From the NCBI RefSeq assembly GCF_045679555.1, contig NC_092094.1:31340552-31404551 (forward strand): 64,000 nt of DNA, in the 5' to 3' direction. This DNA is from Salvelinus alpinus (taxonomy: Eukaryota; Chordata; Actinopteri; Salmoniformes; Salmonidae). Below are positions 43,228 through 62,560 of the stretch, in pieces. How positions within the stretch are numbered: the stretch's first letter is position 1; each line of letters starts with the position of its first letter. The notes beneath the pieces are model-generated. The model worked only from the letters and a program-made list of their open reading frames with translations. It had not been told where the DNA came from and did not search any database. Made by a program: the position numbers and the translations under genes.

Positions 43228-45224
43228 AACCTCTTGACACTACAGGGGGTGCTGTTTCAACTTGGACATTTATCGTTCCCAAATTAAACTGCCTCGTACT
43301 CAATTCTTGCTCGTACAATATGCATATTATTATTACTATTGGATAGAAAACAATCTCTAGTTTCTAAAACCGTTTGAATTATGTCTGTGGGTGAACCAGA
43401 ACTCTTTCTGCAGCGAAATCCATGACAGGAACTGCGAAGGTCTGAAAACGAGGCTCTGTTCTCAGATCAGTTTAAAGCTCTGTATGTATCCTATGGGTCG
43501 ACATGAACTGCACCCGCCTTCCCCTGGATGTCAGTAACCAATGAGAAGTGGAATGGAGTGTCTACGTAGTTCTCAGAGCTTATAAAAGGCCAAGGAACGA
43601 AGTGCGCTCTCTTTTCGTCGTTCGTCATTGCGCAAAGCAAGACCTCAAGATGGCATTTTGAAACGCTCAGTTATTGGCCTTAGCTATATCCGTCTGTAAT
43701 TTAATTCGATATAGGTGTTAGAAACATCATAACGAAGTTATTTTAAACCGAGTTATATCAGTTTATGCGAGTATATTGCTATTTTCGGAATTTCCTTAGT
43801 ATTGCGTTTTGGGGATTTGGGAATGTTGTGGCCACATAGCTATTGTTAGCTGCTAATTCCGAAGTTGAAGACGACGTTTTACAACCAAGCAACGATTATT
43901 TTGGACAAAGGACACCTTGCCCAAGATTCTGATGGAAGCTCGTCCAAAAGTAAGAACTATTTATGATGTTATTCCGTATTTATGTGGAAAAATGTAAACG
44001 CATTTGTCCGCCGTTATTGCGGCACTAGTCTGGCTGTAACGCACACTGTATGTCTAGTAACGTTAATTTTTAAAATCTAACTCAGTGGTTGCATTAATAA
44101 CTAATGCATCTTTCATTTGCTGTCCAACCTGTATTTTTTAGTCAATCTAATCGATAAATAATCGTAAACTTAGGTGCCTTTCCAAGATGGCGCCGGCCAG
44201 AATGCATGACCTGTTGCCACTGATCACATTGTATAACAACGATTTGTGCTGCTAAATATGCACATTTTCGAACAAAACCTATATGCATTGTGTAATATGA
44301 TGTTACAGGACTGTCATCTGACGAAGTATATCAAGGTTAGTCCAAAATTATATATCTTTTGCTGTATTGTTACGATCGCTAACCTGTGCTGCTGGTAAAT
44401 TGCTTGTGTTTCTGGCTATTGTGCTAAGCTAATATAATGCTATATTGTGTTTTCGCTGTAAAACACTTAAAAAATCTGACATATTGGCTGGATTCACAAG
44501 ATGTTGGGCTTTCATTTGCTGTACGCTGTGTATTTTTCAGAAATGTTTTAAGATGAGTAATTAGGTATTTGACGTTGGTCTCTGTAATTATTCTGGCAGC
44601 TTCGGCACTATTTCAGATTGCAGCTGCAATGTAGAACTGTGATTTATACCTGAAATATGCACATTTTTCAAAAAAAACATATGCTATACAATAAATATGT
44701 TATCAGACTGTCATCTTATGAAGTTGTTTCTTGGTTAGTGGCTATTTATATCTTTATTTGGTCGAATTAGTGATGGCTACTGATGGAGTAAAAAACTGGT
44801 GGAGTAAAAAAAGTGGTGTCTTTTGCTAACGTGGTTAGCTAATAGATTTACATATTGTGTCTTCCCTGTAAAACATTTTAAAAATCAGAAATGATGGCTG
44901 GATTCACAAGATGTGTATCTTTCATCTGGTGTCTTGGACTTGTGATTTAATGATATTTAGATTTACATTTACATTTACATTTAACTGACGCTCTTATCCA
45001 GAGCGACTTACAAATTGGAAAGTTCATACATATTCATCCTGGTCCCCCCGTGGGGAATGAACCCACAACCCTGGCGTTGCAAGCGCCATGCTCTACCAAC
45101 TGAGCCACACGGGACCTGTGGGACTAGATGCTAGTATTTACTTGTGACGCTATGCTAGGCTATGCTAGTCAGCTTTTTTACTGTGGGGGGTGCTCCCGGA
45201 TCCGGGTTTGGGAGGAATTAGAGG
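43228..45224 (+). mobile_element. TTAA-flanked non-autonomous DNA element, full length
   Basis: TTAA on both sides (43224-43227, 45225-45228). Deleting the insert gives GCAGTTAACTCTAATGAAC, the unbroken Tc1 transposase sequence. Ends: AACCTCTTGACACTACAGGG at left, and CCGGGTTTGGGAGGAATTAG then AGG at right, so AACCTCT is inverted at the two tips. No protein-coding frame. A tRNA-derived SINE lies near the right end. The TTAA target and short termini are of piggyBac type, but no transposase is present to confirm this. Confidence 0.8.
44961..45116 (-). repeat. tRNA-derived SINE, minus strand
   Basis: On the minus strand the head GGTCCCGTGTGGCTCAGTTG then GTAGAGCATGG is tRNA-like, with the A box TGGCTCAGTTGG and a B-box-like GGGTTCATTCCCC. 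The tail GTCGCTCTGGATAAGAGCGT and TAAATGTAAATGTAAAT is the common fish SINE tail. It sits inside the TTAA element. Confidence 0.88.
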
Positions 45225-56490: not shown

Positions 56491-58115
56491 ACAGTACCAG
56501 TCAACGTTTGGACACACCTACTCATTCAAGGGTTTTTCTTTATTTTTACAATTATTTTCTGAATTGTTTTATTTTTTATTTTATTTTATTTCACCTTTAT
56601 TTAACCAGGTAGGCCAGTGGAGAACAAGTTCTCATTTAGAACTGCGTCCTGGCCAAGATAAAGCAAAGTAGTGCGACAAAAACAACAACACAGAGTTACA
56701 CATGGGATAAACAAACATACAGTTAATAACTCAATAGAAAAATCTCTATACAGTGTGTGTAAATGTAGTAAGATTAGGGAGGAAAGGCAATAAATAGGCC
56801 AAATTGGCGAAATAATTACAATTTAGCATTAACACTGGAGTGATAGATGTGCAGATGATGATGTGCAAGTAGAGATGCTGGGGTGCAAAAGAGCAAAAAT
56901 AAATAACAATATGGCGATGAGGTAGTTGGGTGGGCTATTTACAGATGGGCTGTGTACAGGTGCATTGATCGGTAAGCTGCTCTGACAGCTGATGTTTAAA
57001 GTTAGTGAGGGTGATATAAGTCTACAGCTTCAGGGATTTTTAAAATTCATTCCAGTCATTGGCAGCAGAGAACTGGAAGGAAAGGTGGCCAAATGAGGAA
57101 TTGGCTTTGGGGATGACCAGTGAAATATACCTGCTGTTGCGCTTGCTACGGGTAGGTGTTGCTATGGTGACCAGTGAGCTGAGATAAGGCGGGGCTTTAC
57201 CTAGCAAAGACTTATAGATGACCTGGAGCCAGTGGGTTTGGCGACGAATATGAAGCGAGGGCCAGCCAACGAGAGCATACAGGTCGCAGTAGTAGGTAAT
57301 ATATGGGGCTTTGGTGACAAAACGGATGGCACTGTGATAGACTACATCCAATTTGCTGAGTAGTGTTGGAGGCTATTTTGTAAATGACATCGCCAAAGTC
57401 AAGGATCGGTAGGATAGTCAGTTTTACGAGGGTATGTTTAGCAGCATGAGTGAAGGAGGCTTTGTTGTGAAATAGGAAGCCCGATTCTAGATTTAATTTT
57501 GGATTATAGATGCTTAATGTGAGTCTGGAAGGAGAGTTTACAGTCTAACCAGACACCTAGGTATTTGTAGTTGTCCACATATTCTAAGTCAGAACCATCC
57601 AGAGTTACGATGCTAGTCAGGCGGGCGGGTGTGGGCAGCGATCGGTTGAAGAGCATGCATTTAGTTTAAATAGCATTTAAGAGCAAATGGAGGCCACGGA
57701 AGGAGTGTTGTATGGCATTGATGCTCGTCTGGAGGTTTGTTAACACAGTGTACAAAGAAGGGCCAGAAGTATACAGAATGGTGTCGTCTGTGTAGAGGTG
57801 GATCAGAGAGTCACCAGCAGCAAGAGCGACATCATTGATATATGCAGAGAAAAGAGTCGGCAAAATAATTGAACCCTGTAGCACCCCCATAGAGACTGCC
57901 AGAGGTCCGGGCAACAGGCCCTCCGATTTGACACTCTGAACTCTATCTGAGAAGAAGTTGGTGAACCAGGCGAGGCAATCATTTGAGAAACCAAGGCTGT
58001 TGAGTCTGCCGATAAGAATGCGGTGATTGACAGAGTCAAAAGCCTTGGCCAGGTCGATGAAGACGGCTGCACAGTACTATCTTTTATCGATGGCGGATAT
58101 TATATCGTTTAGGAC

Positions 58116-58601
58116 TGTCACACCCTGGCCTTAGTTATCTTTGTTTTCATTAGTATTTTAGTTAGGTCAGGGTGTGACATGGGTTAGTATGTGTTTTTGT
58201 ATTGTCTAGTGTGGTTTGTATGGTTGAGGGGGTTTCATAGAGTAGATGGGGTTGTGTTCAGTGTAGGTGTTTAGAATTGTCTATGGTTGAGTGTAGTTGT
58301 TTAGGAAAGTCTATGGTTGCCTGATTTGGTTCTCAATCAGAGACAGCTGGTTATTGTTGTCTCTGATTGGGAGCCATATTTAAGGTAGCCATAGGCTTTA
58401 GGTGTTTGTGGGTAATTGTCTATGTCAATGTTCTATGTTGCATGTGTGCACTAGTTCATTATAGCTTCACGATCGTTTGTTGTTTTTTTGTTAGTTTGTT
58501 GTAGTGTTTCGTGTCGTGTTATTTCATCTTCGTTGTTAATAAAGAGAAGATGTATGCTTATCACACTGCGCCTTGGTCCGTCTCTCCACACGATCGTGAC
58601 A
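58116..58601 (+). repeat. 5' LTR of the proline-rich element
   Basis: Contains a tip hairpin (TGTCACACCCTGGCC paired with GGTCAGGGTGTGACA, 58116-58179), the conserved stem-loop at 58328-58375, a TATA-like CATATTTAAGG (58375-58385) right after it, and AATAAA at 58538-58543. If the TATA box is used, U3 ends near 58410 and the stem-loop lies in U3. Confidence 0.85.
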
Positions 58602-60772
58602 GAATTACCCACCACAGGATCAAGCAGCGTGACAAGCGGCAACAGGAGCAAGGCATCAAGGATTCTTGGACATGGGAGGAGATATTGGATGGAAAGGGAC
58701 CTTGGGCTCAACCTGGAGAATATCGCCGTCCCAAAGCTGAGCTGGAGGCAGCGAAAGCAGAGAGGCGGCGATATGAGGAGGCAGCACGGAGGCAAGGCTG
58801 GAAGCCCGTGAGTACTACCCAAAAATTTATTGGGCGGGGGCTAGGAGGTAGTGGGCCGAGGGCAGGTAGGAGACCTGCGCCCACTTCCCAGGCTAACCGT
58901 GGAGAGCGGGAGTACGGGCAGACACCGTGTTACGCAGTAGAGCGCACGGTGTCTCCTGTACGTGTGCATAGCCCAGTGCGGGTTATTCCACCTCCCCGCA
59001 CTGGTAGGGCTAGATTGAGCATTGAGCCAAGTGCCATGAAGCCGGCTCTACCTATCTGGCCACCAGTGCGTCTCCTCGGGCCGGCTTACATGGCACCAGC
59101 CTTACGCATGGTGTCCCCGGTTCGCCTACATAGCCCGGTGCGGGTTATTCCACCTCCCCGCACTGGTCGGGCGACGGGGAGCATTCAACCAGGTAAGGTT
59201 GGGCAGGCTCAATGCTCAAGGGAGCCAGTACGCCTGCACGGTCCGGTATTTCCGGCGCCACCTCCCCGCCCCAGTCCAGTTCCACCAGTGCCTACACCAC
59301 GCACCAGGCTTCCAGTGTGTCTCCAGAGCCCTGTTCCTCCTCCACGCACTCGTCCAATGGTGCGTGTCTCCAGCCCATTACCACCAGTGCCTACGCCACG
59401 CACCAAGCCTCCTGTGCGTCTCCAGAGTCCTGTGCATCCTGTTGCTGCTCCCCGCACTAGCCCTGAGATGCGTGTCCCCAGTCCGGTACCACCAGTTCCG
59501 GCACCACGCACTAGGCCTAATGTGCGCTCCCAGGGTCCAGTATGCCCTGTTCCTTCTCCCCGCACTAGCTTGAAGGTGCGTGTCCTTAGCCCGGTGACTC
59601 CAGTTCCGGCACCACGCACCAGGCCTACAGTGCGCCTCATCCGATCTGAGCCATCCGTCTCCCCAGCGCCATCTGAGCCATCCGTCTCCCCAGCGCCATC
59701 TGAGCCATCCGTCTCCCCAGCGCCATCTGAGCCATCCGTCTCCCCAGCGCCGTCTGAGCCATCCGTCTGTCCCGAGCCATTAGAGCCGCCCGTCTGTCCC
59801 GAGCCGTCAGAGCCGTTAGTCAGTCAGGAGCCGCTAGAGCCATTCGTCAGTCAGGATCTGCCAGAGCCGCCAACCAGACAGGATCTGCCAGAGCCGCCAA
59901 CCAGACAGGATCTGCCAGAGCCGCCAACCAGACAGGATCTGCCAGAGCCGCCAACCAGACAGGATCTGCCAGAGCCGCCAACCAGACAGGATCTGCCAGA
60001 GCCGCCAACCAGACAGGATCTGCCAGAGCCGCCAGCCAGCCATGAGCAGCCAGATCCGTCAGCCAGCCATGAGCAGCCAGATCCGTCAGCCAGCCATGAG
60101 CAGCCAGATCCGTCAGCCAGCCATGAGCAGCCAGATCCGTCAGCCAGCCATGAGCAGCCAGATCCGTCAGCCAGCCATGAGCAGCCAGATCCGTCAGCCA
60201 GCCATGAGCAGCCAGATCCGTCAGCCAGTCATGAGCCGTCCAGCCAGGATCCGCCAGAGCCGTCCAGCCAGGATCCGCCAGAGCCGTCCAGCCAGGATCC
60301 GCCAGCCAGCCAGGATCCGCCAGAGCCAGCCAGCCAGGATCCGCCATTCAGTACGGTGCTGCCCCTTATCCTGGTGCTGCCCCTTATCCTGGTGCTGCCC
60401 CTTATCCTGGTGCTGCCCCTTATCCTGGTGCTGCCCCTTAGTCCGGTGCTGCCCCTTAGTCCGGTGCTGCCCCTTAGTCCGGTGCTGCCCCTTATCCCGG
60501 TGCTGCCCCTTATCCCGGTGCTGCCCCTTATCCCGGTGCTGCCCCTTAGTCCGGTGCTGCCCCTTAGTCCGGTGCTGCCTCTTAGTCCGGTGCTGCCCCT
60601 GAATCCAGTGGGGTTAAGTTGGAGGGTGGACATTTGGAGGAGGCTACGAAAGCGGGTAGTGACTATGGTGGGGTGGGGACCACGACCAGTACCAGAGCTG
60701 CCACCATGGACAGACGCCCACCCAAACCCTCCCATAGACTTTATGCTGGTGCGTCCGGAGTTCGCACCTTAA
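58550..60772 (+). CDS. Proline-rich tandem-repeat protein of a non-autonomous LTR element
   Basis: An uninterrupted frame from the first in-frame ATG (58550, inside the left LTR, a few bases after its AATAAA) to TAA 60770-60772: 740 codons. Residues 1-90 are charged and non-repetitive (DSWTWEEILDGKGPW, PKAELEAAKAERRRYEEAA, probably helical). Then come about 270 residues of PVR...PVPPxPTPRTR-like units. These are followed by 27-bp repeats (SEPSVSPAP x4; LPEPPTRQD x6; QPDPSASHE x7), SSQDPPEP units, and 18-bp repeats (LPLILV, LPLSPV, LPLIPV, 14 in all). A unique C-terminus follows (WRRLRKRVVTMVGWGPRPVP, ending LVRPEFAP). No known domain was recognised. Openness is partly explained by the repeat unit lengths being multiples of three, since other frames are also open over the repeats. 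Only this frame continues through the non-repetitive ends. Confidence 0.7.
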   Translation: MYAYHTAPWSVSPHDRDRITHHRIKQRDKRQQEQGIKDSWTWEEILDGKGPWAQPGEYRRPKAELEAAKAERRRYEEAARRQGWKPVSTTQKFIGRGLGGSGPRAGRRPAPTSQANRGEREYGQTPCYAVERTVSPVRVHSPVRVIPPPRTGRARLSIEPSAMKPALPIWPPVRLLGPAYMAPALRMVSPVRLHSPVRVIPPPRTGRATGSIQPGKVGQAQCSREPVRLHGPVFPAPPPRPSPVPPVPTPRTRLPVCLQSPVPPPRTRPMVRVSSPLPPVPTPRTKPPVRLQSPVHPVAAPRTSPEMRVPSPVPPVPAPRTRPNVRSQGPVCPVPSPRTSLKVRVLSPVTPVPAPRTRPTVRLIRSEPSVSPAPSEPSVSPAPSEPSVSPAPSEPSVSPAPSEPSVCPEPLEPPVCPEPSEPLVSQEPLEPFVSQDLPEPPTRQDLPEPPTRQDLPEPPTRQDLPEPPTRQDLPEPPTRQDLPEPPTRQDLPEPPASHEQPDPSASHEQPDPSASHEQPDPSASHEQPDPSASHEQPDPSASHEQPDPSASHEQPDPSASHEPSSQDPPEPSSQDPPEPSSQDPPASQDPPEPASQDPPFSTVLPLILVLPLILVLPLILVLPLILVLPLSPVLPLSPVLPLSPVLPLIPVLPLIPVLPLIPVLPLSPVLPLSPVLPLSPVLPLNPVGLSWRVDIWRRLRKRVVTMVGWGPRPVPELPPWTDAHPNPPIDFMLVRPEFAP

Positions 60773-60783
60773 GGGGGGGGTTA

Positions 60784-61269
60784 TGTCACACCCTGGCCTT
60801 AGTTATCTTTGTTTTCATTAGTATTTTAGTTAGGTCAGGGTGTGACATGGGTTAGTATGTGTTTTTGTATTGTCTAGTGTGGTTTGTATGGTTGAGGGGG
60901 TTTCATAGAGTAGATGGGGTTGTGTTCAGTGTAGGTGTTTAGAATTGTCTATGGTTGAGTGTAGTTGTTTAGGAAAGTCTATGGTTGCCTGATTTGGTTC
61001 TCAATCAGAGACAGCTGGTTATTGTTGTCTCTGATTGGGAGCCATATTTAAGGTAGCCATAGGCTTTAGGTGTTTGTGGGTAATTGTCTATGTCAATGTT
61101 CTATGTTGCATGTGTGCACTAGTTCATTATAGCTTCACGATCGTTTGTTGTTTTTTTGTTAGTTTGTTGTAGTGTTTCGTGTCGTGTTATTTCATCTTCG
61201 TTGTTAATAAAGAGAAGATGTATGCTTATCACACTGCGCCTTGGTCCGTCTCTCCACACGATCGTGACA
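60784..61269 (+). repeat. 3' LTR of the proline-rich element
   Basis: Same length and, by eye, the same sequence as the 5' LTR. Stem-loop at 60996-61043, TATA-like box at about 61043-61053, poly(A) signal AATAAA at 61206-61211. Confidence 0.9.
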
Positions 61270-62560
61270 AGGACCTTGAGCGTGGCTGAGGTGCACCCAT
61301 GACCAGCTCGGAACCCAGATTGCATAGTGGAGAAGGTATGGTGGGATTTGAAATGGTCGGTGATCTGTTTGTTAACTTGGCTTTTGAAGACTTTAGAAAA
61401 GCAGGGTAGGATAGATATAGGTCTGTAACAGTTTGGGTCTAGAGTGTCACCCCCTTTGGAGAGGGGGATGACCGCGGCAGCTTTCCAATCATTAGGAATC
61501 TCAGACGATATGAAAGAGAGGTTGAACAGGCTAGTAATAGGGGTTGCAACAATTGCGGTGGATAATTTTGGAAAGAGAGGGTCCAGATTGTCTAGCCCAG
61601 ATGATTTGTAGGGGTCCAGATTTTGCAGCTCTTTCAGAACATCAGCTATCTGTATTTGGGTGAAGGAGAAGTGGGGGGGCTTGGGACAGTTGCTGCGGGG
61701 GGTGCAGAGCTGTTGGCCGGGGTAGGGGTAGCCAGGTGGAAAGCATGGCCAGCCGTAGAAAAATGCTAATTGAGATTTTTGATTATCGTAGATTTATCGG
61801 TGTTGACAGTGTTTCCTAGCCTCAGTGCAGTGGGCAGCTGGGAGGAGGTGCTCTTATTCTCCATGGACTTTACAGTGTCCCAAAACTTTTTGGAATTTGT
61901 GCTACAGGATGCAAATGTATGCTTGAAAAAGCCAGCCTTTGCTTTCCTTACTGACTGTGTATATTGGTTCCTAAATTCCCTGAAAAGTTGCATATCGGGG
62001 GGCTATTCGATGCTAATGCAGTATGCCACAGGATGTTTTTGTGCTGGTCAAGGGCAGTCAAGTCTGAACCAAGGGCTATATCTGTTCTTAGTTCTACATT
62101 TTTTGAAAGGGGCATGCTTATTTAAGATGTGCAAAGGGTGGCTACTTTGAAGAATCTCAATTATAAAATATATGTTGATTTGTTTAACACTTTTTTGGTT
62201 ATTACATGATTCCATATGTGTTATTTCAAAGTTGGATGTCTTCACTATTATTCTACCTTGTAGAAAATAGTAAAAATAAAGAAAAACCCTTGAATGAGTA
62301 GGTGTGTCCAAACTTTTGACTGGTACTGTGAAAAGAGTGTCAAAATTATACAGATGTCTGTTATTATATTTGGGTGTGCTTGAATCCTCTGAACAGGGAT
62401 TTTAGCTCAAGTCAATCAACAGGACTCTTGAACAGAAGCATGAGAAAATATTTATATGTAGATGCTGGATCACAGGTAAATAAGCCCCAAGAGTTTGACA
62501 GGTTTAAAGAGCTAATAGTGTCTCAGGTGGATGACAGGAGAAGAGAGTACATTTTCCCTT

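What the first reader, a model, noticed from the sequence alone, without database searches (positions are those of the whole stretch)
58116..61269. Very young non-autonomous LTR element whose only gene is a 740-codon proline-rich tandem-repeat ORF
Seen: identical-looking 486-bp LTRs, a perfect AGGAC duplication, no enzymatic domains, and one frame filling the internal region from within the 5' LTR to the base before the purine tract. The non-repetitive N- and C-terminal ends are open in the same frame. Inference: a gene-carrying non-autonomous retrotransposon that moved recently, with a possibly structural (Gag-like or packaging) or selfish protein. The three successive in-frame repeat families (27, 27 and 18 bp) look like repeated expansion under a coding constraint.
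Basis: partly seen in the sequence, partly recalled or inferred. Interest (0 to 1): 0.78.

Follow-up and report, generated by a model that had tools for sequence, protein, structure and literature searches.

The report
Helper-dependent fish retrotransposon with own gene
A recently inserted fish jumping element has no enzymes of its own but carries one long, repeat-filled gene that selection preserves, and probably borrows the machinery of a self-priming (sushi-type) retrotransposon to copy itself; the job of the gene product is unknown.

Summary
Window 58116-61269 is an LTR element with identical 486-bp LTRs, an AGGAC duplication (empty site seen in LINE copies) and one 740-codon frame that starts inside the 5' LTR. 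No enzyme domain was found. The exact LTR/PBS junction occurs 1,012 times in this genome.

New here: (1) The PBS is not tRNA-like; it is the 10-nt complement of the inferred transcript start, and the two change together across subfamilies (26 A/T, 11 G/C, 0 crossed). This is the self-priming layout of Tf1/sushi elements. (2) Sushi-type (DUF4939 Gag) elements here have 11-nt self-priming pairs in 9 of 10 loci read, similar tips and a G-run purine tract: the likely helper. (3) The gene is selected: pN/pS 0.38 in loci picked by PBS only (0.27 in the main domain type; 1.00-1.49 in other frames), omega about 0.5 on internal branches. (4) U3 and R are shuffled between lineages, as strand transfer between RNAs would do.

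The protein's function, translation and helper are not shown; a Gag-like or RNA-binding role is my guess. New variant of a known kind.

The parts
58111..58115 (.). target site duplication AGGAC (left)
   Evidence: empty site in paralogous LINE copies
58116..58601 (+). 5' LTR, 486 bp, identical to 3' LTR
58377..58383 (+). TATA-like box TATTTAA, starting 31 nt before inferred R start
58408..58417 (+). inferred R start / self-primer GTGGGTAATT, exact complement of the PBS
   Evidence: covariation
58538..58543 (+). AATAAA poly(A) signal
58603..58612 (+). PBS AATTACCCAC (self-priming), lying inside the coding frame (reads ...RITH...)
58550..60772 (+). 740-codon ORF starting inside the 5' LTR
   Evidence: selection
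58550..58807 (+). N-terminal domain (core WTWEEILDGKGPWAQPGEYRR...), conserved across subfamilies
58808..59644 (+). proline/arginine-rich region with degenerate 54/108-bp repeats, net charge +38
58832..58840 (+). poly-G tract (interrupted in this copy), variable in length among copies; site of many frameshifts
59645..60346 (+). acidic proline-rich arrays of 27-bp units (SEPSVSPAP, DLPEPPTRQ, HEQPDPSAS), net charge -42
60347..60601 (+). uncharged hydrophobic array of 18-bp units (LPLxPV), 62% I/L/V
60602..60769 (+). C-terminal segment, unique sequence, linked to U3 type
60771..60783 (+). polypurine tract AAGGGGGGGGTTA
   Evidence: G-run tract before sushi LTRs
60784..61269 (+). 3' LTR
61270..61274 (.). 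target site duplication AGGAC (right)

Best explanation
A helper-dependent LTR retrotransposon of the self-priming (Tf1/sushi) kind. Inferred cycle: transcription starts at about 58408; the first 10 nt of the RNA fold back onto the PBS at 58603-58612 and prime reverse transcription; reverse transcriptase and integrase come in trans from sushi-type elements with compatible tips and purine tract. The element carries its own primer, so it need not share the helper's PBS. It encodes one protein, translated from an AUG within R/U5 through the PBS: a small conserved N-terminal domain, a basic P/R-rich stretch, acidic repeats and a hydrophobic repeat array. The protein is under purifying selection while lineages replicate, so it most likely helps its own RNA (RNA binding, particle entry or assembly). 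Shown by sequence: anatomy, R/PBS covariation, selection, shuffling. Inferred: transcript start, self-priming, helper identity, translation, protein role.
For: Anatomy, TSD and empty site. R/PBS pairs: of 19 full-length copies 16 are GTGGGTAATT/AATTACCCAC and one (L056) has it with the last PBS base changed; in 20 loci picked only by a 19-nt LTR/PBS string, 9 are A/T and 7 G/C; 4 of 5 sister loci are G/C; crossed pairs 0. Of ten sushi-type Gag loci read (of the 150 rows), nine show the same layout with 11-nt pairs, one of them with a different pair; of those nine, eight LTRs begin TGTCAC and seven end GTGACA; G-run + TAC precedes sushi LTRs, nearly as in copies L041 and L058. Selection: omega on internal branches 0.52 (N-term) and 0.56 (middle) against 0.89-2.57 in other frames; terminal branches 0.74 and 0.94; pN/pS 0.38 for 18 sequences, 0.27 for 15 of one domain type, against 1.00-1.49 in other frames. 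A version of the N-terminal domain follows in 20 of 20 PBS-picked loci; in-frame ATG in the LTR in 18 of 20. Recombination: all four U3a x R combinations among 18 copies, 17 of them near-identical in the N-terminal region; Cend linked to U3a in 18 of 18.
Against: No expression, transcript-start or mobility data. R motif not found in 3 of 20 PBS-picked loci (L097, L104, L112) nor in L091; L107 and L044 differ by one base (G.U wobble) and L053 by one mismatch. For this element alone a 10-nt match arises in 91 of 20,000 shuffles, so the case rests on covariation, and related copies are not independent. Four AUGs precede the main AUG in R. Only 9 of 19 full-length copies have the whole ORF open to the TAA stop; in the middle region 10 of 12 indels are not multiples of three. 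One of ten sushi loci (L062) showed no pair. The helper is inferred from shared features; no element with this PBS and a pol gene was found, but only part of the family was read. The tips also fit the rGmr1 clade (PMC3601003, passages).
Confidence: 0.68

Rival explanations
1. The protein is only the decayed remnant of a gag (or captured host) gene; the RNA itself is what is mobilised, and the frame survives because the repeats tolerate change.
For: Frame breaks are common (9 of 19 full-length copies fully open); terminal-branch omega is near 1, and 10 of 12 indels in the middle region shift the frame; repeat units are 3n long without stops, so open frames there are cheap.
Against: Purifying selection in the non-repetitive N-terminal domain across diverged subfamilies; frames of middle, array and C-terminus agree in 13 of the 15 copies where all three could be read; ATG in LTR retained in 18 of 20.
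Confidence: 0.18
2. The helper is not sushi-type but another Ty3/Gypsy clade (for example Gmr1) or an autonomous sister carrying the same LTRs.
For: Published rGmr1 tips also match (PMC3601003, passages). Only part of the family was read, so a sister with pol could be missed.
Against: Self-priming is characteristic of the Tf1/sushi group (PMC6317226, passages), and sushi-type elements here show it in 9 of 10 loci read. This PBS followed within 30 nt by a sushi-like Gag start: 0 sites. Longest frame among the 150 best hits of another N-terminal type is 1006 aa.
Confidence: 0.22
3. The R/PBS match and low pN/pS are products of recent common descent and selected sampling, not of function.
For: Copies were chosen by similarity; copies are related; one search used a protein query, which favours few amino-acid changes.
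Against: The PBS-picked sample was chosen by 19 nt at the LTR/PBS junction and gives low pN/pS with control frames at or above 1; both PBS types occur with both N-terminal types (L095, L096 T; L113 C), and R matches in all three.
Confidence: 0.08

Closest known systems
Tf1/sushi group of Ty3/Gypsy, self-priming (PMC4600332 section 3 and passages, PMC6317226 passages seen; Tf1 details recalled)
   Same: PBS complementary to inferred transcript start; LTR tips fitting TGTYANR/CNTNACA (PMC3601003, table passage); 5-bp target duplication; AATAAA near the LTR end (PMC3601003 section 12)
   Different: no Gag-Pol or enzyme domain found; ORF begins inside the LTR and runs through the PBS
LARD / TRIM and other non-autonomous LTR elements (search listings only; definitions recalled)
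   Same: LTRs, PBS, purine tract, TSD, no enzymes, many copies
   Different: has a long ORF under purifying selection; LARDs and TRIMs are held to be non-coding (recalled)
BARE-2, Morgane, ETn/MusD type parasite-helper pairs (recalled; names seen only as search terms or in listings)
   Same: depend on a helper element for enzymes
   Different: those keep parts of a recognisable gag or pol (recalled); this protein reaches no Pfam cut-off
Retand LTR elements with tandem repeats in plants (PMC11963269, search listing and abstract start only)
   Same: tandem repeats inside an LTR element
   Different: those are a plant lineage defined by its own reverse transcriptase, with a long internal region

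Membership tests
non-autonomous LTR retrotransposon | LTR pair with TSD | tested here: met
   (5-bp TSD in 16 of 19 copies)
non-autonomous LTR retrotransposon | no protease, RT, RNase H or integrase | tested here: met
   0 Pfam families at E<=1 for the 740 aa; no such enzyme in 10 of 13 other frames; internal regions of 19 copies only 2.0-2.7 kb
non-autonomous LTR retrotransposon | mobilised in trans by a helper | not testable with these tools
   near-identical LTR pairs imply recent mobility; helper not shown
LARD / TRIM | non-coding internal region (definition recalled) | tested here: not met
   selected ORF
Tf1/sushi group | self-priming PBS complementary to transcript start | tested here: met
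   sequence complement and covariation; transcript start itself inferred
Tf1/sushi group | LTR tips TGTYANR ... CNTNACA (PMC3601003) | tested here: met
   TGTCACA ... CGTGACA
Tf1/sushi group | Gag-Pol with sushi-type RT/IN | tested here: not met
Gmr1 clade | integrase upstream of RT | not testable with these tools
   element has no pol; only tips could be compared

The most novel reading that the evidence does not exclude
A retroelement 'satellite' with its own dedicated protein: a new kind of intrinsically disordered, charge-patterned, repeat-expanding protein, translated from an AUG in the LTR across its own primer-binding site, by which a parasitic RNA captures or builds particles around the enzymes of sushi-type elements, freed from the helper's primer by carrying a co-evolving self-primer.
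Probability: 0.3. Interest if true: 0.82.

Novelty: new variant of a known kind. Interest (0 to 1): 0.62.

Why it matters
Helper-dependent LTR elements are usually thought of as passive RNAs. A large family that keeps a selected, non-enzymatic protein would show that such parasites can evolve their own accessory gene, and gives many natural variants to ask what it does. The matched R/PBS pairs give a direct sequence test of self-priming in a vertebrate element, and the shuffled U3 and R modules look like a natural record of strand transfer between different RNAs. It also warns annotators: ORFs like this are easily called host proline-rich genes (my inference, not checked).

Tried and rejected
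Standard tRNA PBS: rejected by eye, no TGG after the LTR; the sequence is instead the complement of an LTR segment. An apparent 2,456-aa frame at L057: rejected, it runs through an assembly gap of N. A programmed -1 frameshift near the poly-G tract: considered because many copies break frame there; not claimed, since tract length simply varies and the offset is +1 in some copies and +2 in others. Relation of the N-terminal domain to known families: PDB by single sequence, best E 0.12, by profile none at E<=1; Pfam only one sub-cut-off hit, best E 0.015; AlphaFold gave mean pLDDT 55, so no fold search was run. Autonomous partner by PBS + sushi-like Gag start: 0 sites. Literature: ten searches, judged from titles and starts of abstracts, and passages of one fish review (PMC7599744), showed nothing I recognised as this family; most subscription papers and Repbase were not searchable, so it may already be catalogued. 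My first reading that L044 and L053 carry the G form of R was wrong; they carry other single changes. One search counts rest on columns typed over; one C-terminal row of 150 was lost. Copies L042 and L048 (tandem arrays) were left out of the tree.
Full report
Observation. The element is at 58116-61269. The LTRs (58116-58601, 60784-61269) are identical over 486 bases, with TGTCAC...GTGACA tips and AGGAC on both sides. The host sequence is a LINE reverse-transcriptase region on the minus strand (the type is read by eye). When the flanks are joined with one AGGAC, all 40 scored hits of the genome (2,235 candidates) align at 95-96% over 245-251 of 251 bases, so the empty site is common and the duplication real. 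One frame runs from ATG 58550 inside the 5' LTR to the stop at 60770-60772, 740 codons. The repeat arrays of 27, 27 and 18 bp are as described, after a more degenerate 54/108-bp region. No Pfam family matches the 740 aa at E<=1; in 10 of the 13 other frames of 80 aa or more only weak sub-cut-off hits appear, none of them an enzyme of an LTR element. No difference in 486 sites means a young insertion; an age needs an assumed rate, so I give none.

Family. The exact 19-nt LTR/PBS junction GTGACAGAATYACCCACCA occurs 1,012 times (504 + 508), the reversed control 0. I fetched 18 further full-length copies, chosen by N-terminal similarity; with the window copy, 16 of 19 have a 5-bp TSD (none found for L042, L055, L058), 18 of 19 differ by 0-6 substitutions between LTRs (L039 has 20, from a small inversion), and internal regions are 2.0-2.7 kb. 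The frame is open from the N-terminal part to the TAA stop in 9 of the 19. In the 150 best N-terminal matches 60 lie in frames of 500 aa or more and 69 in frames under 150; in 149 transcribed C-terminal matches 104 are 500 or more. A poly-G tract right after the N-terminal domain varies in length: 10 indels, 9 not multiples of three, in 38 copies.

Self-priming. After the LTR there is no tRNA-type PBS. Instead AATTACCCAC (58603-58612) is the exact complement of GTGGGTAATT (58408-58417), which begins 31 nt after the start of a TATTTAA box. In shuffled LTRs a 10-nt match occurs in 91 of 20,000, so alone it is suggestive. The covariation is stronger. A compensatory form was predicted (GTGGGTGATT with AATCACCCAC) and found: 9 sites of that PBS followed by ATG, and in 4 of 5 loci read the LTR has the matching G (L091 not found). 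In 20 loci of contig 1 picked by the PBS string alone, 9 are A/T, 7 are G/C, none crossed; L097, L104 and L112 show no motif and L107 is one base off. In the 19 full-length copies 16 are exact A/T, L056 has a changed last PBS base, and L044 and L053 have one change in R. This is the layout described for Tf1, Tj1 and the sushi group (PMC4600332 section 3; PMC6317226 passages).

Likely helper. Sushi-type Gag (DUF4939, PF16297) is abundant here (150 of 150 scored matches over the cut-off, 3,997 candidates). Of ten 5' ends read, 9 show an 11-nt LTR/PBS pair one base after TGACA, eight AACGATCCGGC and one AAACACTGAGC; L062 shows none. Of these nine LTRs eight begin TGTCACGAATCCC and L065 begins TGTCAG; seven end GTGACA and two (L065, L069) CTGACA. 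Before that LTR start the genome holds G-runs followed, in nearly all sites listed, by TAC (132 pattern matches, overlapping counts included; control 0). Copies L041 and L058 of the present family have nearly the same junction, and the window copy has G8 + TTA. So tips, purine tract and priming mode are compatible, while the PBS differs; a self-primed parasite need not share it. That sushi enzymes act on it is inference. The tips also fit rGmr1 (PMC3601003 passages). A search for this PBS followed within 30 nt by a sushi-like Gag start gave 0.

The protein. In the 20 PBS-picked loci a version of the N-terminal domain follows in all 20 (shifted in L110), an in-frame ATG in the LTR exists in 18, and 17 are open through the domain (L099 and L101 have stops). 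A second, quite different version of the domain (YTTWEEIDRW...) also sits in frames up to 1006 aa. On 17 of these loci plus the window (3 dropped: L095, L109, L110, anchor not found), pN/pS is 0.38, and 0.27 for 15 sequences of one domain type; shifted frames give 1.32 and 1.00, and 1.49 and 1.08. On trees of the window and 38 copies, omega on internal branches is 0.52 in the N-terminal part and 0.56 in the middle (58847-59638), against 2.57/1.39 and 0.89/1.98 in the other frames; on terminal branches 0.74 and 0.94; stop-making changes on internal branches are 1 in frame, 4 and 14 in the other frames. Most of these 38 copies came from a protein search, which favours few amino-acid changes in the N-terminal part. 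Pairs among seven diverged sequences give ratios of 0.23-0.65. Indels in the N-terminal part were all of 3 bases (10 of 10), but in the middle only 2 of 12 were multiples of three. So the gene looks selected while lineages replicate and drifts after insertion. Middle, 18-bp array and C-terminus share a frame in 13 of the 15 copies where all three could be read. The protein has a patterned charge: N-terminal domain; +38 basic P/R stretch; -42 acidic repeats; uncharged LPLxPV array with 62% I, L and V; short C-terminus. AlphaFold was not confident (pLDDT 55). I think an RNA-binding, self-associating accessory role is most likely; this is a guess from composition.

Shuffling. Compared with the window copy, the outer half of U3 is either 99-100% or 80-91%, R is either 94-96% or 72-84%, and all four combinations occur among 18 copies (2, 6, 3, 7), while the first 209 internal bases are 97.6-100% in 17 of 18 (L058 89%). 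The C-terminal end follows the U3 type in 18 of 18. In the copies that share the window's U3 but not its R, the difference begins about 19 nt after the R start. Transfer of strong-stop DNA from one RNA to another would give this pattern. The copies were chosen by N-terminal similarity, which exaggerates the likeness there but does not create the four combinations.

Verdict. A real, recent, helper-dependent LTR element with a selected gene, self-priming by sequence. New variant of a known kind. The protein's job, its translation and the helper remain to be shown.

Noticed in passing
G000:C21:49827443-49843075 and eight other places (two on C4; C16, C30, C5, C18, C11, C9): Head-to-tail copies of the element at a period of about 2.3-2.8 kb: nine groups, 29 of the 150 rows; in L042 neighbouring copies share LTRs. 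Real unequal recombination or assembly artefact is open.
   Followed up: partly
L039:3274-3308: A short inversion (about 35 bp) in the 3' LTR of one copy spans the R-start/self-primer segment, seemingly flanked by CATAG/CTATG (by eye).
   Followed up: no
window 58832-58840: Poly-G tract inside the ORF resembles the terminal purine tract and changes length between nearly identical copies; it could be an internal second priming site or mere slippage.
   Followed up: partly
window 58422-58444: Four AUGs in the inferred R leader precede the ORF's AUG at 58550, so translation would need leaky scanning, reinitiation or an IRES.
   Followed up: no
window 57666-58076 and 61275-61793, minus strand: The element sits in a LINE reverse-transcriptase region with at least 40 close copies.
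   Followed up: yes
window 45041-45114, minus strand: tRNA-Ala (TGC) call by ARAGORN.
   Followed up: no
G000:C20:46138500-46148400 (L057): A copy whose repeat array runs into a long assembly gap, giving a false 2,456-aa frame.
   Followed up: yes
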